From Anthopleura xanthogrammica (Eukaryota; Cnidaria; Anthozoa; Actiniaria; Actiniidae): 64,000 nucleotides of DNA. A program made the position numbers and the translations under genes. The DNA is taken from the NCBI GenBank assembly GCA_964019055.1, contig OZ025211.1, forward strand, positions 13,530,082-13,594,081. Direction: 5' to 3'. The notes beneath the pieces were generated by a model. That model had not been told where the DNA came from, made no database searches, and saw only the letters and a program-made list of their open reading frames with translations. This document shows positions 1 through 43,560 of the stretch, piece by piece; positions within the stretch are counted from its first letter, which is position 1; each line of letters starts with the position of its first letter.

Positions 1-232
1 ATGTTTTACTAACATGAATGTCTACAGCATGCAAGGATCTATTATTCATTTTTGATATTATGTTTTATGCTTTTATCTTTTATTTAAGTTTCATAACAAT
101 AGTCTCAGATGGGAGAATGGTTGGGATACCTGTGTTTGCATCGTCATCATATACTTGGGGGTAGGAGGGATGAAGAGAGAGGCACGTGCACACACCGCAT
201 TTAATAAGATCCAATTTATTTACAGTCCATAC

Positions 233-834
233 CAGTGTCAAATTAGTCATTTCAATAGTGACCTCAGTTTCTTGATTTTTTTCTTCTTCTTTTTCCATTT
301 CCCTTAGTAGTTTTCTACAGTTGACACAGATACCTGATAAGAATATAAGAGTACTGGACTAAGTAAGCCTGGATTGATTTAATAGAATGAACAAAAATAA
401 TGTCATATACCTGATCCAGCTTGAACAAACACGCCGGTTCTCTTCAAGATCAATTGCGTATCCCTCTTACCAATTCCTCTTTCACCCTTCGGCCACGTTC
501 TTTTGCCTTTTCCATGATTAGAGATTTGAACCGGTACTCTACACCGTGTAGACTTCCTCGTCCAACCAAGCCCTAGCTTCCCGCGATGAAGTGGACAAAT
601 TGTCCATGTTTCGATATCTTTGGGACGTGTAAACAATCCCGCTCTACTTAAAATCAGATCTATTTCATTCTCGTGTCCAGCAAATTGAAATAGATTCTCA
701 TGGCTAGAAATCTCCTTTTTACATGCAAGGAAAGGAATCACATTAGAATATTTATGGCGATCTCTTGGATCATGACCACATCCCCCTCCAGTAAGTGCTT
801 TAAAAGAGCATTGCAAATCCATCGAGACTAACAT
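233..834 (-). pseudogene. N-terminal exons of the TTAA-element transposase-like protein
   Basis: Two exons are visible. Exon 1 (411 to about 834, first ATG at 834) carries the TWTICPLHRGKLGLGW block, then a Cys and a basic stretch KGERGIGKRD. This ICPxHR...LGxxW pattern is, from memory, the N-terminus of a large multi-copy family in corals and fish. It ends at a consistent donor (GGATCAG|gtatat). Exon 2 (233-333) starts after a TTATCAG acceptor and encodes GICVNCRKLLREMEKEEE, a C-x2-C motif followed by an acidic, lysine-rich stretch, then a donor CACTG|gtatgg. Joining the two keeps the frame (G|GT). Both exons are open, so this part looks less decayed than copy A, but the rest of the gene is not in the window. 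A metal-binding N-terminal domain is an inference from the Cys/His spacing. Confidence 0.6.
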
Positions 835-1659
835 CTTAACAGCCCGACTGAACAACTATTTTGTTATTGCTCTGCCGGACTTTTTAGAAACATACATAAC
901 ATGTCAAAGTTAATTAGGTCCAGTCATCCTTATCTTGTCGATCAAAAAATATGGGCATAGAGTTGGAACTTGTGAAGCTTTTCACTATTTTATTTGAACG
1001 AATATGAATTATTAAATCTTCCAAATATTTTCTGAAAAACTGATTTAAAGAAAAGCAACTAAAAAAATTCTAATAAGAAAGCAAAAACACGAATAATTTC
1101 AATTCAAATGATGAGTACCATAATATAGATCGAAGTGCTTTGCATAAATTATGCAGCGCTTAGAGGTTCACTATAAACCGAAATTACAAGATTTAGAGCA
1201 AAAAAGTTTTTAAAATCCTCCAATTTTAAAGGCAAAACATGATTTTGTTGTTTTTGTTTTTATTTCAAGACAGTTTGCGATAAAATAAGAAAAGCATGAC
1301 TGTTTATGCAAATTGTTTACCGCGACTTGGCAATTTGACTGATCTTAGCCGACGTTAGACTTGCACGATTTTGGGCAAGTTCAGAGCTCCATAACTTCGC
1401 TCGAATACATTTACCCAAGCTGATTTTTTCACAGTCATATATTTACTATCTTAACTTTCAGACTACAGAATATTATCAAATAATTTTTGGTAGCACACAG
1501 TAAAATAATTTTTGTTTTTGCCCTATTTTTGTGAAAGCGAAAAGTATAACTTAGAAATATTTTTTTAATTATGCTACAAAGTAGGTGGAAATCCATATAA
1601 AGGCTAGGGACTAAACTTGAGATAATAATTAACAACTTTGAGAAGGTTTCGAGTCATTA

Positions 1660-1893
1660 CAGTATTTAATTTTGCCACACGAGGCCGCCAAAGTTGACAA
1701 AAAATCGAGCGTCTCAAAGCGGCGCTTTGACGAAATTCCGTTTTTCGCGATTTTCTCCTAAAATATTCAATCTTTTTAAAAACAAAAAGCACCATGATGT
1801 ATTTCATGTTAAGGGCTACCTATGGTTCAAATATGAGCAAAATCGATTTTTTGAGCATTGCCGCGATTGTCTGGTTTTTACAGATATCTTCTC
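1660..1893. repeat. Terminal inverted repeat end of copy B
   Basis: About 230 bp with diverged similarity to the outer part of both inverted repeats of the 36.1-43.6 kb element, including TTCAAATATGAGCAAAATCG here against ACCAAATATGAACAAAATCG there, and the terminal TTTTTACAGA. It abuts a TTAA target site at 1894-1897. Confidence 0.7.
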
Positions 1894-1897
1894 TTAA

Positions 1898-3339
1898 AAC
1901 CCTATTTGCCGTAAATAGAGGAAGCTCTATTTTCCCCATACATTTCCTATAAGACTCGGCGGCTATTTTGTAAGCTGAAACGCATCATTGCGCATGTGTG
2001 AGCAGGCTCATGTTCCATATTTCTGGCAACGGTTGGCACACAGCACAACTTTTTTGTCCTTCTCTAACCAATTCCAAACCTAGATCTATGTGACAGGCAA
2101 ATAGTCAATTCATGTTTAGCTGTCGACTGGAAAATACCACACCGGGAAAGTATGAGGTCAACTTTCGTTTCAACGCCAGAAAAATTTAACAATCTCTTGT
2201 GATTTGATATATCCTTACAGCAGGATGATAATGTTATTACAGTTTCAGCTTTCCTATCGCGAACATCTAGACCACATTCTCCTCCTTAAACGCTGAAGGA
2301 GCACGACATCTTTTGAAATAAAACTTTACATATACGACGACCGACGAGAAAGACAACATGAATACTAATTAGGGCGGTTTGAAATCTACAAGTTGTTCAT
2401 CACAATGACATATTGCAAAAAGAATCGTATCAATAAGGTTCCAAATTTTATTTGATATTCATTAAAAGCAGCTTGTATTTACGAGTACAGTACTTCTAAT
2501 CATTTTCATATTAATATAGTACTGCAGTGTACCCTAAATATGTCAGTTGCGATATATATTATGCCCTTATTTGACTGACTACGCAGACTGCGGCAGCACT
2601 ATTATTTTTCTTTAGTTTGACAAAATATTTCAACCAGTTCACAATCAAATTGCTAGACGTATTAGAAATACTTTTCATGATATAAAGTAATATTTTCTAG
2701 CAATCCTGGAAACATTTTTAGTCTTGAAAAACTATTTTTTGACTCGCAACTTCGCAAATGAGGTTGGTTGTCGCTTTCAGTGTCAGTGGAACAAAACCCG
2801 AAATTTGTGAAAAGTAAAGGGCTCTTATTCGACTAAAATCAAAAAGAGTCCAGAATTTTTTTTATAACTTTAAAGAACATCCTTTTGTGAACCTTCTGGT
2901 ATAAATATCGAGAGTTTTGATGAAACACCTCGTATATTATTCTTCGCTCGAGTAACGGGTAGTTTACTAGTTCATTTATCGCTGTACGCATATCGTCTTT
3001 ATAAAAGGCCTCCGTTCCTATCCAAAATAATCCATATTTAATGAAACTGTTATTTCTTGGCCGTACTAGGCCCAATTGACCTAGATACAATGAATGAATG
3101 ACTTTTTATTTTGTTTTAGCGAGTTTACGAGACACTCAAAAATCGGCTAAATACCTAGTCGCGTGAGTCGAAATCAGGCTGGCATCGTCTTTGGTCGATA
3201 TTTTTCAAAATAACGAATATTTCAACTAATCAACCCCGTTTCGCTTACCTACATACCCTACCCTATCAATGATCAAAATATAAGCCAACACGATTTTTGG
3301 GCCGTGTCCGCGAATTTTTGAATTTTGTTTGATTTTTAC
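1898..3339. other. No gene recognised
   Basis: AT-rich sequence with only short chance reading frames. An 83-codon frame on the minus strand (2839-3090) matches nothing I recognise. No repeat structure, RNA gene or splice-consistent exon is evident. Confidence 0.5.
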
Positions 3340-4571
3340 TGACATTCACTCTTAACATCTTAGCTGTGCCTGTAGTATCATACAGTTTCAACATAATCAA
3401 CTGGAAGTTAAGTGAGATCAAAAGATTAGACACAAAGACAAGGAAATATCTAACAATGAACCGTATGCATCACCCTAAAGCGGATGTTGACAGATTTTAT
3501 GTAAAAAGGAAAGAAGGAGGTAGGGGACTCGTCCAGATAGAAAAGTCGTACAAAATATCAACTATCGGCCTGGACATGTACCTGAAAGAAAACCAAGAAT
3601 GCCTTCTAGGTCTAGTCTCTAAGCATGAAAACAACAAAAAGATGTACTCAATACACAAAGAAAGCAAAAGATTCAAAGCTGAAACTGCCGAAGCAAATGT
3701 TCCAGAATCTTTACCGAAAGAAAAAGACGTTTCCAGTATCGAAAAAGCACGAAGATTAAAGACCACCTACAAAGACCATCTGCAAACGGAACAACGTGAA
3801 AAGTGGGAATCTAAACCCCTTCATGGCCAGTACAAAAGGCAAGTGAACAAAGCAGATGTGGACAAACAGAGAACACACAGTTGGTTGAAAGGAACAGGCT
3901 TAAAGGCAGAGACAGAGGGACTCATCATAGCAGCGCAAGATCAGACACTTGCTACAAGGTACTACGAGAACAAGATCATAGGAAAAGATGTTAACATCAA
4001 ATGCAGAACGTGCGGTGAATACGACGAAACTATCGATCACATTATATCAGGCTGTCCTGTTCTCGCAAAGAAAGAGTTCATAGAAAGACACGATAAAGTT
4101 GGGACATACGTTCACTGAAAGCTTTGCAAGCAGTATGGATTCGACGTATGCAGGAAATGGTATGAACATGACCCTGAAAAAGTAATGGACAACGATACAG
4201 CAACAATTTTATGGGACATGCAAGTACACACGGACAAAACCATCAAAGCTAACAGACCAGACATCATAGTCAAGAACAAATTAGAAAAACGATGTCTTCT
4301 AATCGATGTGTCAATCCCAGCAGAAAGAAATGTGTCCTTAAAACAGATAGAAAAACTCTCCAAATACAAAGATCTAGAAATAGAAATAAGAAAAATGTGG
4401 GGTATGGAAACAAAAACCATACCTATCGTCATCGGGGCACTTGGGTTGATACACAAAGGACTAGAGCAGTACGTCAATAAATTACTAGGAGACATACCTA
4501 TCGCAAAAATGCAGAAGATTGGCCTCCTAGGAACTGCTCACATCATCAGGAGAACTCTTATGATTAATTGA
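3340..4571 (+). pseudogene. Non-LTR retrotransposon, C-terminal part with zinc knuckle and restriction-like endonuclease
   Basis: The frame begins inside the RT C-terminal region (VVSYSFNIINWKLSEI), so the copy is 5'-truncated near 3340. It continues through basic segments to a CCHC knuckle, CRTCGEYDETIDHIISGC (C-x2-C-x8-H-x4-C), then a restriction-like endonuclease core: RPDIIVKNK, 11 residues, then LIDVSIP (the PD...D pattern), followed by SKYKDLEIEI and IGALGLIHKG near the C-terminus. This order is the hallmark of LINEs that encode a site-specific REL endonuclease instead of an APE. The only break is an in-frame TGA at 4116-4118, where family members have Trp; frames before and after are the same. 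Clade (R4/Dong, NeSL, Hero or other) is not assigned. It ends at 4571 and is followed by a 3' UTR and an (AAT)n tract. Confidence 0.75.
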
Positions 4572-36108: not shown

Positions 36109-36112
36109 TTAA

Positions 36113-36899
36113 GAGGGCATGTCTGTAAAAATCAAAAAAATCGAAAATCGGCGGCCACACTGAAAAAGTCGATTTAGTTCATATTTGGTCCAAACACGTG
36201 GAATACCACATAAATAAACGTACTGGTGTTCATTTTCGATAATTTCACTTTTATTTTGAAAAAATGGAGAAAATCGATTTTGGTCGCCGGCGGCCTCAAT
36301 TTAGCCCAAATTGAAGGCGAAAATGGTAGGTCTGAAAAAGGTGTTCGCGTAAAAAAATGAAGCAAACTAGAGAAAGTCTGTTTTAAAATCTTGATAAAGG
36401 AAAGGTTAAAGATAAATTTAAGCTAAAATATTAATAGGGAAACACGATTTAATAAGTGATCAGAAACTATTTACGAACTACATTTTTCGGGTTTCTTAGA
36501 TATTTAAATTTCACCCTTAGTTTGCAAAGCTTATTTTCATGTGCACCGGGTACTCGGATTTATCTAAAATTCCAGCCATAATAACTTCGAATATTAAGCT
36601 AAATCATATGTAAAATTCAGTTTGGGTTATTCAATGAGAGCTATATACGAAACTCTCGAATTCAGAGAAATTTAGGTTGTTTCGACTTGGCATCCAAGAA
36701 AACCTGTTCGAGGCAGACATGACTGTATCCCGTTTTTTAATTTTAATTTTAATTTTGCTTCATTTCTGATATTTGTCTTATATTAATATTAGATACTGAA
36801 TGCAATACATTAAAATTATTTGCCCTTGTTGGACTTTAGTTTAAAATCATTTTCCTTACATTTCAAAATAAGCATGTAAACACATGCACAGGCACGATC
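36113..36899. repeat. Left long terminal inverted repeat
   Basis: About 787 bp, inverse of 42809-43556. Shared landmarks include GACCAAAATCG next to GCCGGCGGCC, GTGCACCGGGTACTCGGA and GTCTGCCTCGAACAG in inverse. Confidence 0.93.
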
Positions 36900-37786
36900 T
36901 AAGACCGAAGTCGTTGTCACTAGCCAATCGAAGATTGGAGTGAGCCTTGAATTGCTAACGATTCTTTCTATTAAAATCAGTTTTAAAGTTTAGTTTATTC
37001 TGAATTAGCTATTTTTACCTTAAGATAAATAAATTCGAGGAAGGTGTTTCATTTTTACCTTTCACTTTCATCTAAAGTGGGCTCCCTGTGGCGGGGCCTG
37101 CTTGTTTCCGGTATTCATAGTCAAGCATGCAGCTTTATATTTTTTTCTCCACAAAGCAACTAAATCTGGCTCAATTTTACTAAAGACGGCCGGATAATGC
37201 CGCCGCTTACTAGCTAGTCAGTAGTCAATAAATCACGCATTTTTATGTTATTTCCGCCTAAAAGAGTACAATTATTTAAAAAGTTTGAAAAGGAAAACTG
37301 AAAATAAAGGGAAGAAATTAAAATGGATGTTTTTAATAAAGCTCATGCTTGCTAATCTTTAATCTTACTGCATGCTTCCACTTTTCTCTTCCCCATTCCG
37401 ATAAAATATAAACAAGTCGTCCGACATTCACACAGTCGGCTTGTGTCATAAACTGTCAAAACATTCATGACGTGGCTGGGCCACTGTCTCGACTCAGGCA
37501 AGATCACCGTAAAGAATATCTTTAAATATGATTTAGTTAACAACAATCCAGTTCACACTTGTTTTGATTTTTGTAAAATCTGATATCTCGCTAGCAGTTT
37601 ACCATCGAGAGAAAGAGACCCGAAACAAAGCTGAAGATGTTCAGTAGAAAACCTTGAACGTGCATGAGCCTTGTTGTGGGAATTAAACACAAGACGATCA
37701 TGAATATCGAACTTTCCGGCCAGTTCAACATGAGTTTGAAAGACAGTGAACGTCAGTCTCCTCTTTATATTTTCCTTTACCATAAA

Positions 37787-40700
37787 CTATTTAGAGCTGC
37801 AGGAGCAAAGGTTTACCATCGAGTCTAGTCGATCAATGTATGGCTTCTTCAATTTTACTTTTATATCAGACGTAGAAATGTCAAAGTAATTGCAGATTTC
37901 TTCAAGCATTTTCAAGGAAACCTTGTTTAGTTTTGAACTTGCTGAGAGATCACAAATGTTATGTACGTCGTACACAATAGGATGAGATGGAGTTGCTTCT
38001 TCTATGACTTCAGCACGGATGTCACTGAGGGCCTTCTCCCTTTCTATATTCTGAATATCTTCGTCATCAGTGTCTGCATCCTCTTCCGCCGTGTCCTGCT
38101 TATTCTTGTTTGCTTTATAGCGAGAGAAGAAGTTCGTTATCTGTGTTCGTTTCTTGCTGTTCGCATTTCCTTTGTAACTGTCTTGGGATCTTTCTTGAGA
38201 CCAGATATCTCTCCAATTTTAAACGCTTTGACGAGATAGTCTTTCTGTTTGGAAGAAAATCGTTTCTTCCCTTGAGCAGACTTGAGCGCTCATCCCATCT
38301 TGAGAGAAGGCTTGGACTTCCGAGCAACCTTACCACCAGCGTTTCCATCTGTATTAGGAACTGAGGAAATGCCTTCTTCAAGCTTCATTGAGTAACCCAA
38401 CATTGCCTTCAAGAACTCTTCTATGGGACCCACACTGTAAATGATGCTCAAGAGCTGAATAACGTTGGTACGATTTGACACACCCTTCCCCCGGGCAAGA
38501 AAAAAGCTGACTTGATTCCATTTCTTCTAAATCATCAGATGTGTCATCACAAGAGCCTTTATTTTCCTTGGAGGCGGTCTGTTTGACTTTCTTTTGTTGT
38601 CTTGGCTTTACCTGGACGAAACATACGGCTTTACCATTTGTCTCATCTTGATCTTCAATAGTCAGTTTGGGTATGGCATTGTCTTTCACTGCTGTGGGGA
38701 TAGATGGAGGGGGGTTGCACAGCGATACCCTAACGCCATGAACACCACCACAAGACTGAATAGCCGTCTTCAACTGTTGCGCTGTTTCAACATCGTGTCC
38801 TGAATTAAGGTGGAAATTGATGTGCGATTTTATGTTGGCGGCCTTTCTGTCACATGGCCCCTTTCCTCCCTGTGGATCAGAGAAATCTAATTGCTCCAGG
38901 GATACTCCATGGCGTTTTGCAACAACTTTAGCTCCTATCATGGTAAGGCCTGAGTGGTAACAGCCGGCATTGTCCTGTCTGTAATAAATGGACTTGAGCA
39001 TCGGCATAACCTTCTTCAATTGATAGATTACATTACATTACACGCTGTCTTGAGTACATGCAGGAAAGAGATGAATAAAGGGGATCTTTTCAATTTCTGG
39101 AACATTACGGGTAGCCACGGTGACATGCCACGGAATTCCGCGTTTTGCGAACCAGTCGCTCTGACTTTCTCGAAACTTGCGTGGTAAGTACTTCTTGTAC
39201 CCAGTCTTGTACGAGTAAAATTGAATTTGGATCTAAATTATCGAGAACGCGAAGTCGGGCTTCATCGTGATTTATGGATCTTAGCAAGTGGGCTTTCCAC
39301 GCAAGAATGCTCTCTTCAGATTGCTTGATAATGTATTCCATCTCTTCTTTGTCGTCTGAACTGCAATTTACCTTAGGGCATGCTATTGAATCTTTAATGT
39401 CTTGTAGTACTTGCCTCAAGATGGAACAGCGATCACACTGAAGGTCATGTTTGTGATCCTTGCAAACGATTTGAAAATCTTTGTCCTTAGGGTCACTCAG
39501 TGAATATGCAATACAGTGATCAGCAACTTTAGAGGCCGCAGAGACATGTACCTTAACAAGCAAACAAATATTAACATAAAAATGTGGATTTTAATTAAAG
39601 TATCAGTAAGCTCAAGTAGGGCGCAAATAGTAGTATTAGTATATATAGCTAAAGTATCTCATGGTCTATACGAAGGGCTAAGATCGAAACGTTTTTTCAG
39701 AATTCGTAAATTTAAAGACTCGATGATAAAACTAGTTCATCTCTGCATTACCGAGAACTATTGATATCCTTTATCTCTTTATAGTTTGAAAGATGTACAC
39801 ATGGTTTAATGGTACTATGACTGCACTTTTACGACTGCATGAGGCGTTCCTCTAACTAACCTTTCGACCCCTTTAAGGGAACAAATAAGGGATATTGCTT
39901 TAAGAAGCGGCTACATGCATGCGCCTGAATAAAATAAGGCCTCCATCGCTTACCTTATAGTCCCCTTTTAAGTAGCGTTTGGACGACTTCAATTTATTTC
40001 TTTGGAGATTGGACCATGACATTCCCATGCCTCTATCTCCAAGATTTTCGACCATTTCTTCTAAATCGTCGAAAGCTTGCACACCATATGCACTGAAATT
40101 ATCAAGGCCTTGTAAGGATTTTCTCTGGGATGCTGAGCATACTTTAAGTATCCTGTGTAAAGTACTGCGGCTAAGAGGAGGAAAATTTACTTCGCTACAG
40201 AAGGCCTCGTACTGCTGCACTATTCGTTCGGGGATGATTGTTCGGATTACGTTGGGTACTTTGATCTCAACTGTTGAAAGTTTTAGAGTTTTCTCTCCAA
40301 ATGATATGCGGGTTGGTAATAAAGGAAAGAAAATGCTCTAATTTTTTTGGAGCCACATCATTCTTGTTTGGATAGGTTTTTCGACCGGTGTTCCTCTCCC
40401 ATATAGAAGTAAATGCTTCTTAGCGATGTAATACAGATACCGTGTCAGGTCTGGAATCCATTTTTGTAGTGTTAGAAAATGGACTTTGTCAGCCATGATG
40501 GAAAGAATTTGACGGCGAACTTCCCAATGCCCTGCATTTTTGTAGCACTCGGTTAAAGCATCCATTAAGGAAACATCAATACTTTCGGCTTCATCTTTAC
40601 TTGAGTCAACGCTTGATTTTACAGAAGCAAAAAGCATGTCCGGGTCGTTTGGTGCAATTTCCTTCATAACAGTTTCAACAACTTTCTTAGCTTTTTGGGT

Positions 40701-41524
40701 GTATCTTCTTTTTGTTCTGCCAGAGCTTGATCCCATGGTGTTTTTAAGATGTTACGAATTGGAATGACGTCACGCTTTCCTAAATATATATTTAATTGTT
40801 GTAAAGGTGTGGTTGAATCTGCATCATCACCTTCGGAGCTATCACTGTCTTGTAGATGCTATAGATGCTTGATCGTTTTTCATCAGTTGATAGACTTCCT
40901 GTCGTGTAATGACTACCAACCTTCACATCGATATGGCTATTTTCAGGCGTCTGCAGCAAGAGAACATGAGTTTTTTAGAATCATTCACAAAACCGGTAAA
41001 TAATTCACAGAAAAATATAATTTATAATGAAAATTAAAAAAACACAGACATACAGTATATGCGTGTGTATCAATCTTGAACAGATTAATGAACATACCAA
41101 CGTAAGTTTTTTCAAATGAGAAGTAAATGCACTGACTTCATCTTCTTCAACTTCTTCTTTGGCAGAAGAATCAAGATCACTAGTATCCTTCAACTCGATA
41201 GGGCGATTTTCAGGCGTCTGCAGCAAGAGAAAATAAGGTTTTTTAGAATCATTCACACAGAAAAACAATACAGTAATTAAAAAACCAGCTTAAACAGAAG
41301 TCTATAGCTATGGACTTCTTGCTTGAATAGATACGTGGGGGATAGCAGTTTTAAACAGGTAAATGAGCATACCAATAATGCAAGTGGTTTGAAAAGAGAA
41401 GTAACTTCACTGTCTTCTTCTTCTTTAACTTCTTTGGTAGACTTATCATGATCTGCTAATTTCGTTTTATCACTTTTTTCCTTACAAATAGCATCGAGGA
41501 TTCCTCTACAACTGCGGCACAACC
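37787..41524 (-). pseudogene. Transposase candidate of the TTAA element (DNAGCYH / C2H2 family)
   Basis: Exons on the minus strand: 41524-41373 (GLCRSCRGILDAICKEK), 41217-41098 (PENRPIELKDTSD), 40950-39954 (LNIYLGKRDVIPIRN and RTKRRYTQKAKKVVETVM, LSRSTLHRILKVCSASQRKS, LQGLDNFSAYGVQAFDDLEE, MGMSWSNLQRNKLKSSKRYL), and 39551 on (VHVSAASKVADHCIAYSLSD, SILAWKAHLLRSI, NSILLVQDWVQEVL, YYRQDNAGCYHSGLTM, LDFSDPQGGKGPCDRKAANI). A C2H2 finger follows (FSCPGEGCVKSYQRYSALEH, then LQCGSH), then a basic tail (KRFSSKQKDYLVKAFKIGE) to a stop at 37787. I propose the Asp residues in VQDW, RQDNAG and PCDR as an RNase-H-like triad. Frameshifts near 40740, 40330, 39130 and 39060, a stop at 38150, and no ICPxHR exon mean it is dead. 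From memory this protein is multi-copy in corals and fish. Confidence 0.7.
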
Positions 41525-42808
41525 CTAAAAAAGAAACAAATATATGCTTATGTTCATGCCTGGTGCATAAAGCTCCCAACAGGATTTGGAATTGGAGCTA
41601 TTTGTTATTTGAAGATGCATCATGCCTTATACCTTGCTAAGTATTGATTATGAAAATAATTTGATTAAAATATACTGATTGATACTGACTGAGAACACAA
41701 AAGATATAAGAAAGTAAACTATCCATAATTTTGTATATAATAGAATGGTATTTCTTTTTATGAGTGTATAACTTCAAGGGCGGTTCCAGGGGGGTTGAGA
41801 GGTTTATAAGCCCCACCCCTTCCCCCCTCATATATGTTAATTTCGTTATCTCCGATCATTTTGCTGTGCCTGCCAAACTCGTCTTCCAAAAATCCTGGAT
41901 CCGGCTTTGTACCATCTTAGTGATTTTTTTTTGGTTCCCGCCAAAAATGACAATGAGCGTCCATGAACCAACGATCAATTAGCATAGCCGACTCAGCTTA
42001 TCTCGCGCGATCTTCCTCGTACATTTCATTTTGGGTTTTTTTTTTTTTCAAAAATAAAACTCGATGTTAGCAATGCTCATGAATTTAGATGCATTTTCAT
42101 AAAAGTCAATGCTTATATTCTAAATACCTTACAATATGCAAACAAGTACAATTTGAAGTCACTGAACACCTTAGGCCGAATGGAAGACTGCGTGCAAATG
42201 ACAGAACTGAGCCCAATGCAAGGATTTATCGCGATCCACGAAGCCAAATTTACGAGAGATATACTGAACCAACTTACCTGAACCAACTGGTATACATTTT
42301 CCGGTTTTTTCAAAAATTACTTCAAAGAACATTTTTCCAATTCCTTGCTCTGCTTTAGGCCATTTTCTTTGATTATCGTGTTTCGAAATTTCAGCATTGT
42401 CTACATAAACTGCGATCCAAAATTATAAAACCCGAATTTAAGTATAGGAAAATATTTAGAATAAGAGTAAAACCTGTAAAGCCAACTTTCATCAAGGCCT
42501 TATTTCAAGGTCGTAAGTAAATAATTGGCCACCGGTCGCTTCATCTTGAATAGGTAAATACCTAGCTACTTTAAGTATCACAACTAGAAATTGCAACTTA
42601 TGTACCATTTCTACTAGCTCTTCGTCAGGTAATTTATCTCAGTTTTAATTCTCATCAGCCGGTTATGTTGTGTTTTGTGTGTGTGTCTAAATTTCGCATA
42701 AATCTAATATTTAAAAAAAAATTAATATAAAGAATGAAATAAAAAAATTTGTTGTTTTTAGAAATTGTCAAAGTACTATAATTAATATAGGTCGTGAAAT
42801 TATCTATA

Positions 42809-43556
42809 GATCGTGCCGGTGCATATGTTTACATCCTTATTTTGAAATGTAACGAAAATGATTTTAAACTAAAGTCCAACAAGGGCAAAGAATTTTAATG
42901 TATTGCATTTAGTATCTAATATTAATATAAGACAAATATCAGAAATGAAGCATAATAAAAATATAATGGGATACAGTCATGTCTGCCTCGAACAGGTTTT
43001 TTTGGATGCCAAGTCGAAACAACCTAAATTTCTCTGAATTCGAGAGTTTCGTATATAGCGCTCATTGAATAACCCAAACTGAATTTTACATATCATTTAG
43101 CTTAATATTCGAAGTTATTATGGCTGGAATTTAAGATAAATCCGAGTACCCGGTGCACATGAAAATAAGCTTTGCAAACTAAGGGTGAAATTTAAATATC
43201 TAAGAACCCGAAAAATGTAGTTCGTAAATAGTTTCTGATCACTTATTAAATCGTGTGTCCCTATTAATATTTTAGCTTAAATTTATCTTTAACCTATTCT
43301 TTAAACAGATTTTCTCTAGTTTGCTTCATTTTTTTACGCGAACGCCTTTTTCAGACCTACCATTTTCGCCTTCGATTTGGGCTTAATTGAGGCCGCCGGC
43401 GACCAAAATCGATTTTTTCAAAATAAAAGTGAAATTATCGAAAATGAACACCAGTACGTTTAACTATGTGGTATTCTACATGTTTGGACCAAATATGAAC
43501 AAAATCGATGTTTTCACTGTGGCCACGCGATGTTTGATTTTTACAGACACGGCCTC
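42809..43556. repeat. Right long terminal inverted repeat
   Basis: About 748 bp, inverse of the left arm with small indels. Contains GGTACCCGG-like and TCCGAGTACCCGGTGCACAT landmarks. Confidence 0.93.
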
Positions 43557-43560
43557 TTAA

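What the first reader, a model, noticed from the sequence alone, without database searches (positions are those of the whole stretch)
36113..43556. TTAA-target transposon with about 750-bp inverted repeats encoding a DNAGCYH/C2H2 protein: candidate undescribed transposase family
Seen: a TTAA flank on each side, long inverted arms, and between them a multi-exon gene with ordered motifs (GLCRSC, SLQGLDN, VQDW, DNAGCYH, GGKGPCDR, a C2H2 finger). A second, diverged copy at 1-1893 joins the same terminus type to the same exon 2 with the same splice phase. Known: TTAA targets are used by piggyBac and Kolobok, whose transposases do not look like this; proteins of this kind are multi-copy in corals and fish, as I recall. 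Inference: the family is a transposase with an RNase-H-like core (Asp in VQDW, DNAGCYH, PCDR) rather than a host gene family.
Basis: partly seen in the sequence, partly recalled or inferred. Interest (0 to 1): 0.88.

Follow-up and report, generated by a model that had tools for sequence, protein, structure and literature searches.

The report
TTAA jumping gene with DDD transposase
This stretch is a decayed copy of a cut-and-paste jumping gene that inserts at TTAA and carries its own DDD-type transposase; it is most likely the group repeat catalogues call Sola3, although that name could not be checked here.

The parts
36109..36112 (.). left TTAA (target duplication)
36113..36901 (+). left inverted arm, 789 bp, begins GAGGGCATGTCTGTAAAAATC
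   Evidence: arm alignment 1-789/1-750, 90.7%
42807..43556 (-). right inverted arm, 750 bp, begins (reverse strand) GAGGCCGTGTCTGTAAAAATC
43557..43560 (.). right TTAA (target duplication)
42276..42389 (-). remnant of the N-terminal exon (matches residues 100-137 of P0126)
41277..41597 (-). open frame holding the GLCRSC exon
   Evidence: exon limits not determined
39888..40822 (-). main upstream coding piece (helical region, SLQGLDN)
   Evidence: stops inside
37790..39581 (-). catalytic core, C2H2 finger and C-terminal coding pieces, in several frames
39204..39206 (-). Asp 1 of the predicted triad (VQDW)
38972..38974 (-). Asp 2 of the predicted triad (DNAGCYH)
38849..38851 (-). Asp 3 of the predicted triad (GPCDR); 40 residues lie between Asp 2 and Asp 3
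1..1893 (-). partial diverged copy, cut by the window edge, TTAA at 1894-1897
2019..3351 (-). further partial copy: N-terminal exon at 2019-2351, terminus at 3341-3351, TTAA at 3352-3355; inner limit not determined

Best explanation
The element is a dead copy of an autonomous cut-and-paste DNA transposon. Its multi-exon gene encodes the transposase: an N-terminal Cys/His-containing region, a helical middle region, an RNase H-fold catalytic core with an Asp-Asp-Asp triad (D-83/84-D-40-D), a C2H2 finger, and in some members a SAP-like stretch. Inferred working: the protein pairs the two long inverted arms, cuts at their G(A/T)G..TGTC ends and joins the element into a TTAA, whose 4 bp are duplicated. 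Shown by sequence: the ends, TTAA on both sides, filled against empty sites, dispersed near-identical copies, internally deleted derivatives with the same ends. Shown only by prediction: fold and triad. Not shown: binding, cleavage chemistry, activity today. I think it most likely is the group Repbase calls Sola3 (about 0.7); that part is recall plus fit, not a test. The confidence given is for the transposon and DDD transposase reading.
For: Arms and TTAA. 178 matches of the core exon in the genome. Dispersed copies 96-99.9% alike that end at TTAA with unrelated flanks. General end pattern 903 sites against 202 for the reversed control, with 23 inward and 2 outward neighbour pairs among the first 100 sites. 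Subfamily ends 74, 150 and 22 sites, all with control 0; 13 of 13, 10 of 10 and 9 of 9 picked copies between inward ends. Empty-site matches. RNase H order of strands and helices with Asp at the three catalytic positions in two models; best structural neighbours are retroviral integrases and Mos1/SETMAR. Triad conservation.
Against: The window copy is broken, so nothing about it can be active. Foldseek alone is weak (best E 0.011 and 3.4e-4) and lists other RNase H-like nucleases too. With the general end pattern only 4 of 17 protein matches lie in an inward pair, 5 have one end within 8 kb and 8 have none. The letters of the C5 empty site could not be fetched. No activity data.
Confidence: 0.92

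Rival explanations
1. Same mechanism, but a genuinely unnamed superfamily: a DDD transposase lineage separate from Sola3, Kolobok and piggyBac.
For: No curated transposase model seen to match in Pfam, NCBIfam or PHROGs; no source named it as such among the listed hits apart from one 'Transposon Tf2-6 poly, partial' label; motif words found in no relevant paper.
Against: Sola is not covered by those libraries under any name I know, so absence is uninformative; Repbase, which I could not search, curated several of these animals (recall); the tested Sola features fit.
Confidence: 0.22
2. The DNAGCYH protein is a passenger or accessory gene in elements moved by another TTAA transposase (Kolobok or piggyBac).
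For: TTAA is shared with Kolobok and piggyBac; some Kolobok ends also read ..CATGTC (PMC6004289 passage).
Against: The protein itself has a predicted DDD RNase H core with a nearly invariant triad. In the complete L056 element the sense frames of 100 aa or more are the 1008-aa frame and a 157-aa frame that I read as its N-terminal exon. Protein types and end types vary together over three subfamilies.
Confidence: 0.04
3. It is a member of Kolobok or piggyBac.
For: TTAA target; the GAG ends are purine-purine as in Kolobok.
Against: No C/DxxH motif between the second and third acidic residue in the consensus; no THAP model among the matches shown; the 1008 type begins GT; ends and arm length differ from the piggyBac hallmarks.
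Confidence: 0.05
4. Host multigene family spread by segmental duplication, with the repeats alongside by chance.
For: One copy (C6 near 13.62 Mb) shares at least 59 bp of flank with the window copy, so it is a duplicate of the same insertion.
Against: Young copies have unrelated flanks and the same boundaries, empty-site matches and derivatives with the same ends.
Confidence: 0.01

Closest known systems
Sola superfamily, Sola3 group
   Same: DDD transposase, 4-bp target duplication, 2-9 kb, inverted arms up to about 1.1 kb (Sola features from a passage of PMC10741241); TTAA for Sola3 is my recall.
   Different: Nothing tested differs for autonomous copies; one non-autonomous element (L059) has arms of at least 1294 bp, above the quoted 1124. 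Sequence relation untested.
Kolobok
   Same: TTAA target; purine-purine start in the GAG subfamilies.
   Different: No C/DxxH, no THAP match shown, 40 residues between second and third acidic residue, Asp as third residue, one subfamily starts GT.
piggyBac
   Same: TTAA target, DDD triad (the latter by recall).
   Different: Ends lack CC[C/T]T and the arms are hundreds of bp, not 12-19 (hallmarks from a passage of PMC2872659).
Mos1 mariner transposase and retroviral integrases
   Different: 6-16% identity in the listed rows; other domains, ends and target differ.

Membership tests
Sola (Sola3) | DDD transposase | tested here: met
   Predicted fold with Asp at three catalytic positions; 236/239, 234/235, 231/233. 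Prediction, not assay.
Sola (Sola3) | 4-bp target site duplication | tested here: met
   TTAA on both sides of 9 of 9 elements examined; filled-site queries with one TTAA match uninterrupted places.
Sola (Sola3) | length mostly 2-9 kb, TIR 11-1124 bp | tested here: met
   6.4-8.8 kb for 32 picked copies; arms 713-1043 bp in three gene-bearing elements. L059, without the gene, has at least 1294 bp.
Sola (Sola3) | TTAA as the Sola3 target and Sola3 terminal letters | not testable with these tools
   TTAA is seen, but that Sola3 uses it is recall; the 2009 paper is not held.
Sola (Sola3) | sequence homology to Sola transposases | not testable with these tools
   No Sola sequence in the libraries at hand; papers gave no sequence.
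Kolobok | TTAA duplication | tested here: met
Kolobok | termini 5'-RR ... YY-3' | tested here: inconclusive
   GAG subfamilies fit, the 1008 type starts GT; definition from PMC9587614 passage.
Kolobok | C/DxxH between second D and last E | tested here: not met
   By my reading of the consensus lines, no C/D-x-x-H between Asp 2 and Asp 3; the third residue is D.
Kolobok | THAP DNA-binding domain | tested here: not met
   No THAP among the families shown for 48 members (25 of 32 families shown) or 60 members (all 6 shown), nor for six full proteins.
piggyBac | TTAA duplication | tested here: met
piggyBac | 12-19 bp TIR with CC[C/T]T end | tested here: not met
   Ends begin GAG or GTG and arms are hundreds of bp; hallmarks from PMC2872659 passage.
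piggyBac | transposase homology | tested here: inconclusive
   No transposase Pfam family among those shown; remote homology not excluded.

The most novel reading that the evidence does not exclude
An unnamed superfamily of TTAA-targeting DDD transposons with inverted arms of about 700-1000 bp and a transposase of about 1000-1200 aa, spread through cnidarians, amphioxus, a crinoid, bivalves and a rotifer, and young enough in this genome to have many long open frames: a third independent solution to TTAA targeting beside piggyBac and Kolobok.
Probability: 0.22. Interest if true: 0.75.

Novelty: new member of a known kind. Interest (0 to 1): 0.45.

Why it matters
In the sources seen, these proteins are called uncharacterized, hypothetical or C2H2-type (with stray labels such as 'Transposon Tf2-6 poly' and 'SURP and G-patch'), and no Pfam model for their core was seen, so transposase genes are being listed as ordinary animal genes. 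The family gives a DDD transposase with TTAA targeting and no similarity found to piggyBac, which helps to ask how TTAA specificity arose more than once. Its young copies make it a candidate for an active transposon, and TTAA transposons are useful genome tools.

Tried and rejected
Literature: ten searches listed no paper with the motifs of this protein, and none of the passages I read gives Sola3 ends or a Sola3 transposase sequence. Passages only were seen of PMC5199201, PMC2872659, PMC10294476, PMC8634313, PMC4455052, PMC9587614, PMC10741241, PMC11071193, PMC5753468, PMC9783078, PMC4298943, PMC12477816 and PMC6004289; other papers were seen as listings only. The 2009 Sola paper and the 2011 paper on catalytic domains are recalled, not seen.

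Bacterial bridge: I recalled that ISAzo13 (PF07592) may be a bacterial relative of Sola and searched the window's genome for it: no match. This says nothing about Sola3. No relative was confirmed in prokaryote contigs (96 pattern stretches, none confirmed), viral contigs (10, none confirmed) or phage records with P0165.

Fold searches: piggyBac, Kolobok and hAT chains are not among the 50 rows shown by VIA-align; Hermes appears in the Foldseek lists. Absence there excludes nothing. The best match in the viral library was Ostreid herpesvirus 1 ORF109 (E 9.9e-4), which I take as the shared RNase H fold only.

Counts and what was left out: one search used 36 of the 74 sites (GTG-type rows and their variants; GAG rows left out), 21 of the 150 sites (100 are listed; the 3-mismatch rows and three 2-mismatch rows left out) and 22 of 22. 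The 32 protein copies were picked by eye from the listed rows after the sites had been seen; the other matches were not tested this way. One search used the first 100 of 903 sites. One aligned hit (P0243) was left out.

Full report
What is in the window. The element runs 36113-43556 (7444 bp), with TTAA directly outside each end. Its arms align from their first bases, 789 bp against 750 bp at 90.7% identity (five ungapped blocks at 89-95%). The ends read TTAA|GAGGGCATGTCTGTAAAAATC and TTAA|GAGGCCGTGTCTGTAAAAATC. Homologues match at 42389-42276, 40822-39888 and 39581-37790. Six aligned pieces fall in three frames and three of the six contain stops, so this copy is dead. Two further partial copies lie at 1-1893 and 2019-3351, each ending at the same type of terminus with TTAA. 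The short terminus pattern alone is not significant in the window (4 matches with up to one mismatch; 8 of 100 shuffles reach 4).

The family in this genome. A search with the 219-aa DNAGCYH exon gave 178 matches; the open frames listed run from 108 to 1184 aa and many copies have identical scores. I fetched five copies of a 1008-aa type, five of a 712-aa type and four of a 660-aa type, with the focal relatives. Within each type, matching blocks between copies at different places are 96-99.9% alike, and the similarity ends at or within a few bases of TTAA. The types have different but related ends: TTAA|GTGTCATTGTCAGAGAAAACC, TTAA|GAGTGGATGTCAGGAAAAACC and TTAA|GAGGYGATGTCCATAGCC. L056 holds a complete 1008-type element of 7080 bp with 713-bp arms at 98.9% identity. 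Its sense frames of 100 aa or more are the 1008-aa frame and a 157-aa frame that I read as the N-terminal exon.

Ends as a genome-wide signal. TTAAGAGNNNNTGTC occurs 903 times, its reversed control 202 times. Among the first 100 listed sites, neighbours within 12 kb face inward 23 times, outward twice and the same way three times; shuffled strands gave 7.1 inward on average and at most 15 in 2000. Of the 17 listed protein matches in that stretch, 4 lie inside such a pair, 5 more have one end within 8 kb and 8 have none; two of these 8 are of the GTG-ended type. The specific ends of the three types have 74, 150 and 22 sites with up to 2, 3 and 2 mismatches, all with control 0. For the copies I picked, 13 of 13, 10 of 10 and 9 of 9 lie between two inward ends, 7.08-7.09, 7.47-7.77 and 6.4-8.8 kb apart. 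I picked them after seeing the sites, so this shows consistency and is not a blind test.

Target duplication. Nine of nine elements examined have TTAA on both sides. Joining the flanks of two insertions around one TTAA gave queries of 304 bases. One matches an uninterrupted place on C5 over 304 of 304 bases at 80% identity and equal length. The other matches 38 other listed places, all across the junction, at 73-82%. The letters at the C5 place could not be fetched, so its single TTAA is inferred from equal length and not read.

Derivatives. Six elements of 0.68-4.36 kb with the same type of ends and inverted arms were examined (L041, L059-L062, L064). None has the full gene. One of 3.70 kb (L062) has 852-bp arms that are 100% identical and, by my reading, two pieces of the gene on opposite strands.

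The protein. Three searches found 204, 588 and 21 relatives at E up to 1e-3, each among about 8000 scored candidates and with at most 120 listed. Named sources are cnidarians (Exaiptasia, Nematostella, Acropora, Oculina, Actinostola, Paramuricea, Porites), amphioxus (Branchiostoma), a crinoid (Antedon), bivalves (Mytilus, Saccostrea) and a rotifer (Adineta). A distant relative (P0242, 1371 aa, 25% identity, unnamed source) keeps the layout with SDNANSY and GKTVLD at the places of the usual motifs. No transposase model was among the Pfam families shown for 48 members (25 of 32 families shown), 60 members or single proteins. SAP matched 14 of 48 (E up to 0.1, best 1.1e-4) and 3 of 60 (E up to 0.01, best 3.4e-5); where its place was shown it is near the C-terminus. 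NCBIfam and PHROGs gave nothing for two proteins each.

What it is and how it works. A cut-and-paste transposon with a DDD transposase and TTAA target. Ends, target duplication and past mobility are shown by sequence; fold and triad are predicted; binding of the arms by the Cys/His-containing parts and the cleavage chemistry are inference from known DDE/D enzymes. A second copy about 50 kb away shares flank with the window copy and so is a duplicate of the same insertion.

Name. Kolobok fails on C/DxxH and THAP, and piggyBac on ends and arm length. Sola fits the features I could test from a passage of a review (PMC10741241). That Sola3 uses TTAA is recall. I put about 0.7 on Sola3, 0.22 on an unnamed superfamily and the rest on other named groups. 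Hence 'new member of a known kind', with the novel reading kept open.

Noticed in passing
window 1-3355: Two partial copies of the family lie nose to tail, each with its own terminus and TTAA (1894-1897 and 3352-3355); the first may have inserted into the second.
   Followed up: partly
G000 C6:13619143-13626145 (L002, L004, L039): A copy about 50 kb from the window element shares at least 59 bp of its left flank at 96% identity, so element and flank were duplicated together.
   Followed up: partly
G000 C13:2550923-2629572: Ten matches to the same 81-base part of the arm cluster within about 80 kb; looks like an amplified arm-derived repeat.
   Followed up: no
L040 3394-7098: Inside the third focal copy on C3 lie frames that look by eye like a SAP-type protein and another DNA transposon's transposase: a nested insertion. 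No search was run on them.
   Followed up: no
L048 2310-3368: A tandem array with a 6-base period lies inside one 660-type copy, seen as self-matches shifted by 6.
   Followed up: no
P0242 (1371 aa, unnamed source): A distant relative (25% identity) with the same core layout but SDNANSY and GKTVLD motifs; a lead to a wider superfamily beyond animals perhaps.
   Followed up: partly
m1df2ed18fa27 against the viral structure library: Best viral neighbour is Ostreid herpesvirus 1 ORF109 (E 9.9e-4, 13% identity), probably only the common RNase H fold.
   Followed up: no
PMC6004289 passage: Xenopus Kolobok ends of one subfamily read AGGACATGTC after TTAA, close to GAGGGCATGTC here; a shared TGTC inside ends of different TTAA groups may or may not be chance.
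   Followed up: no
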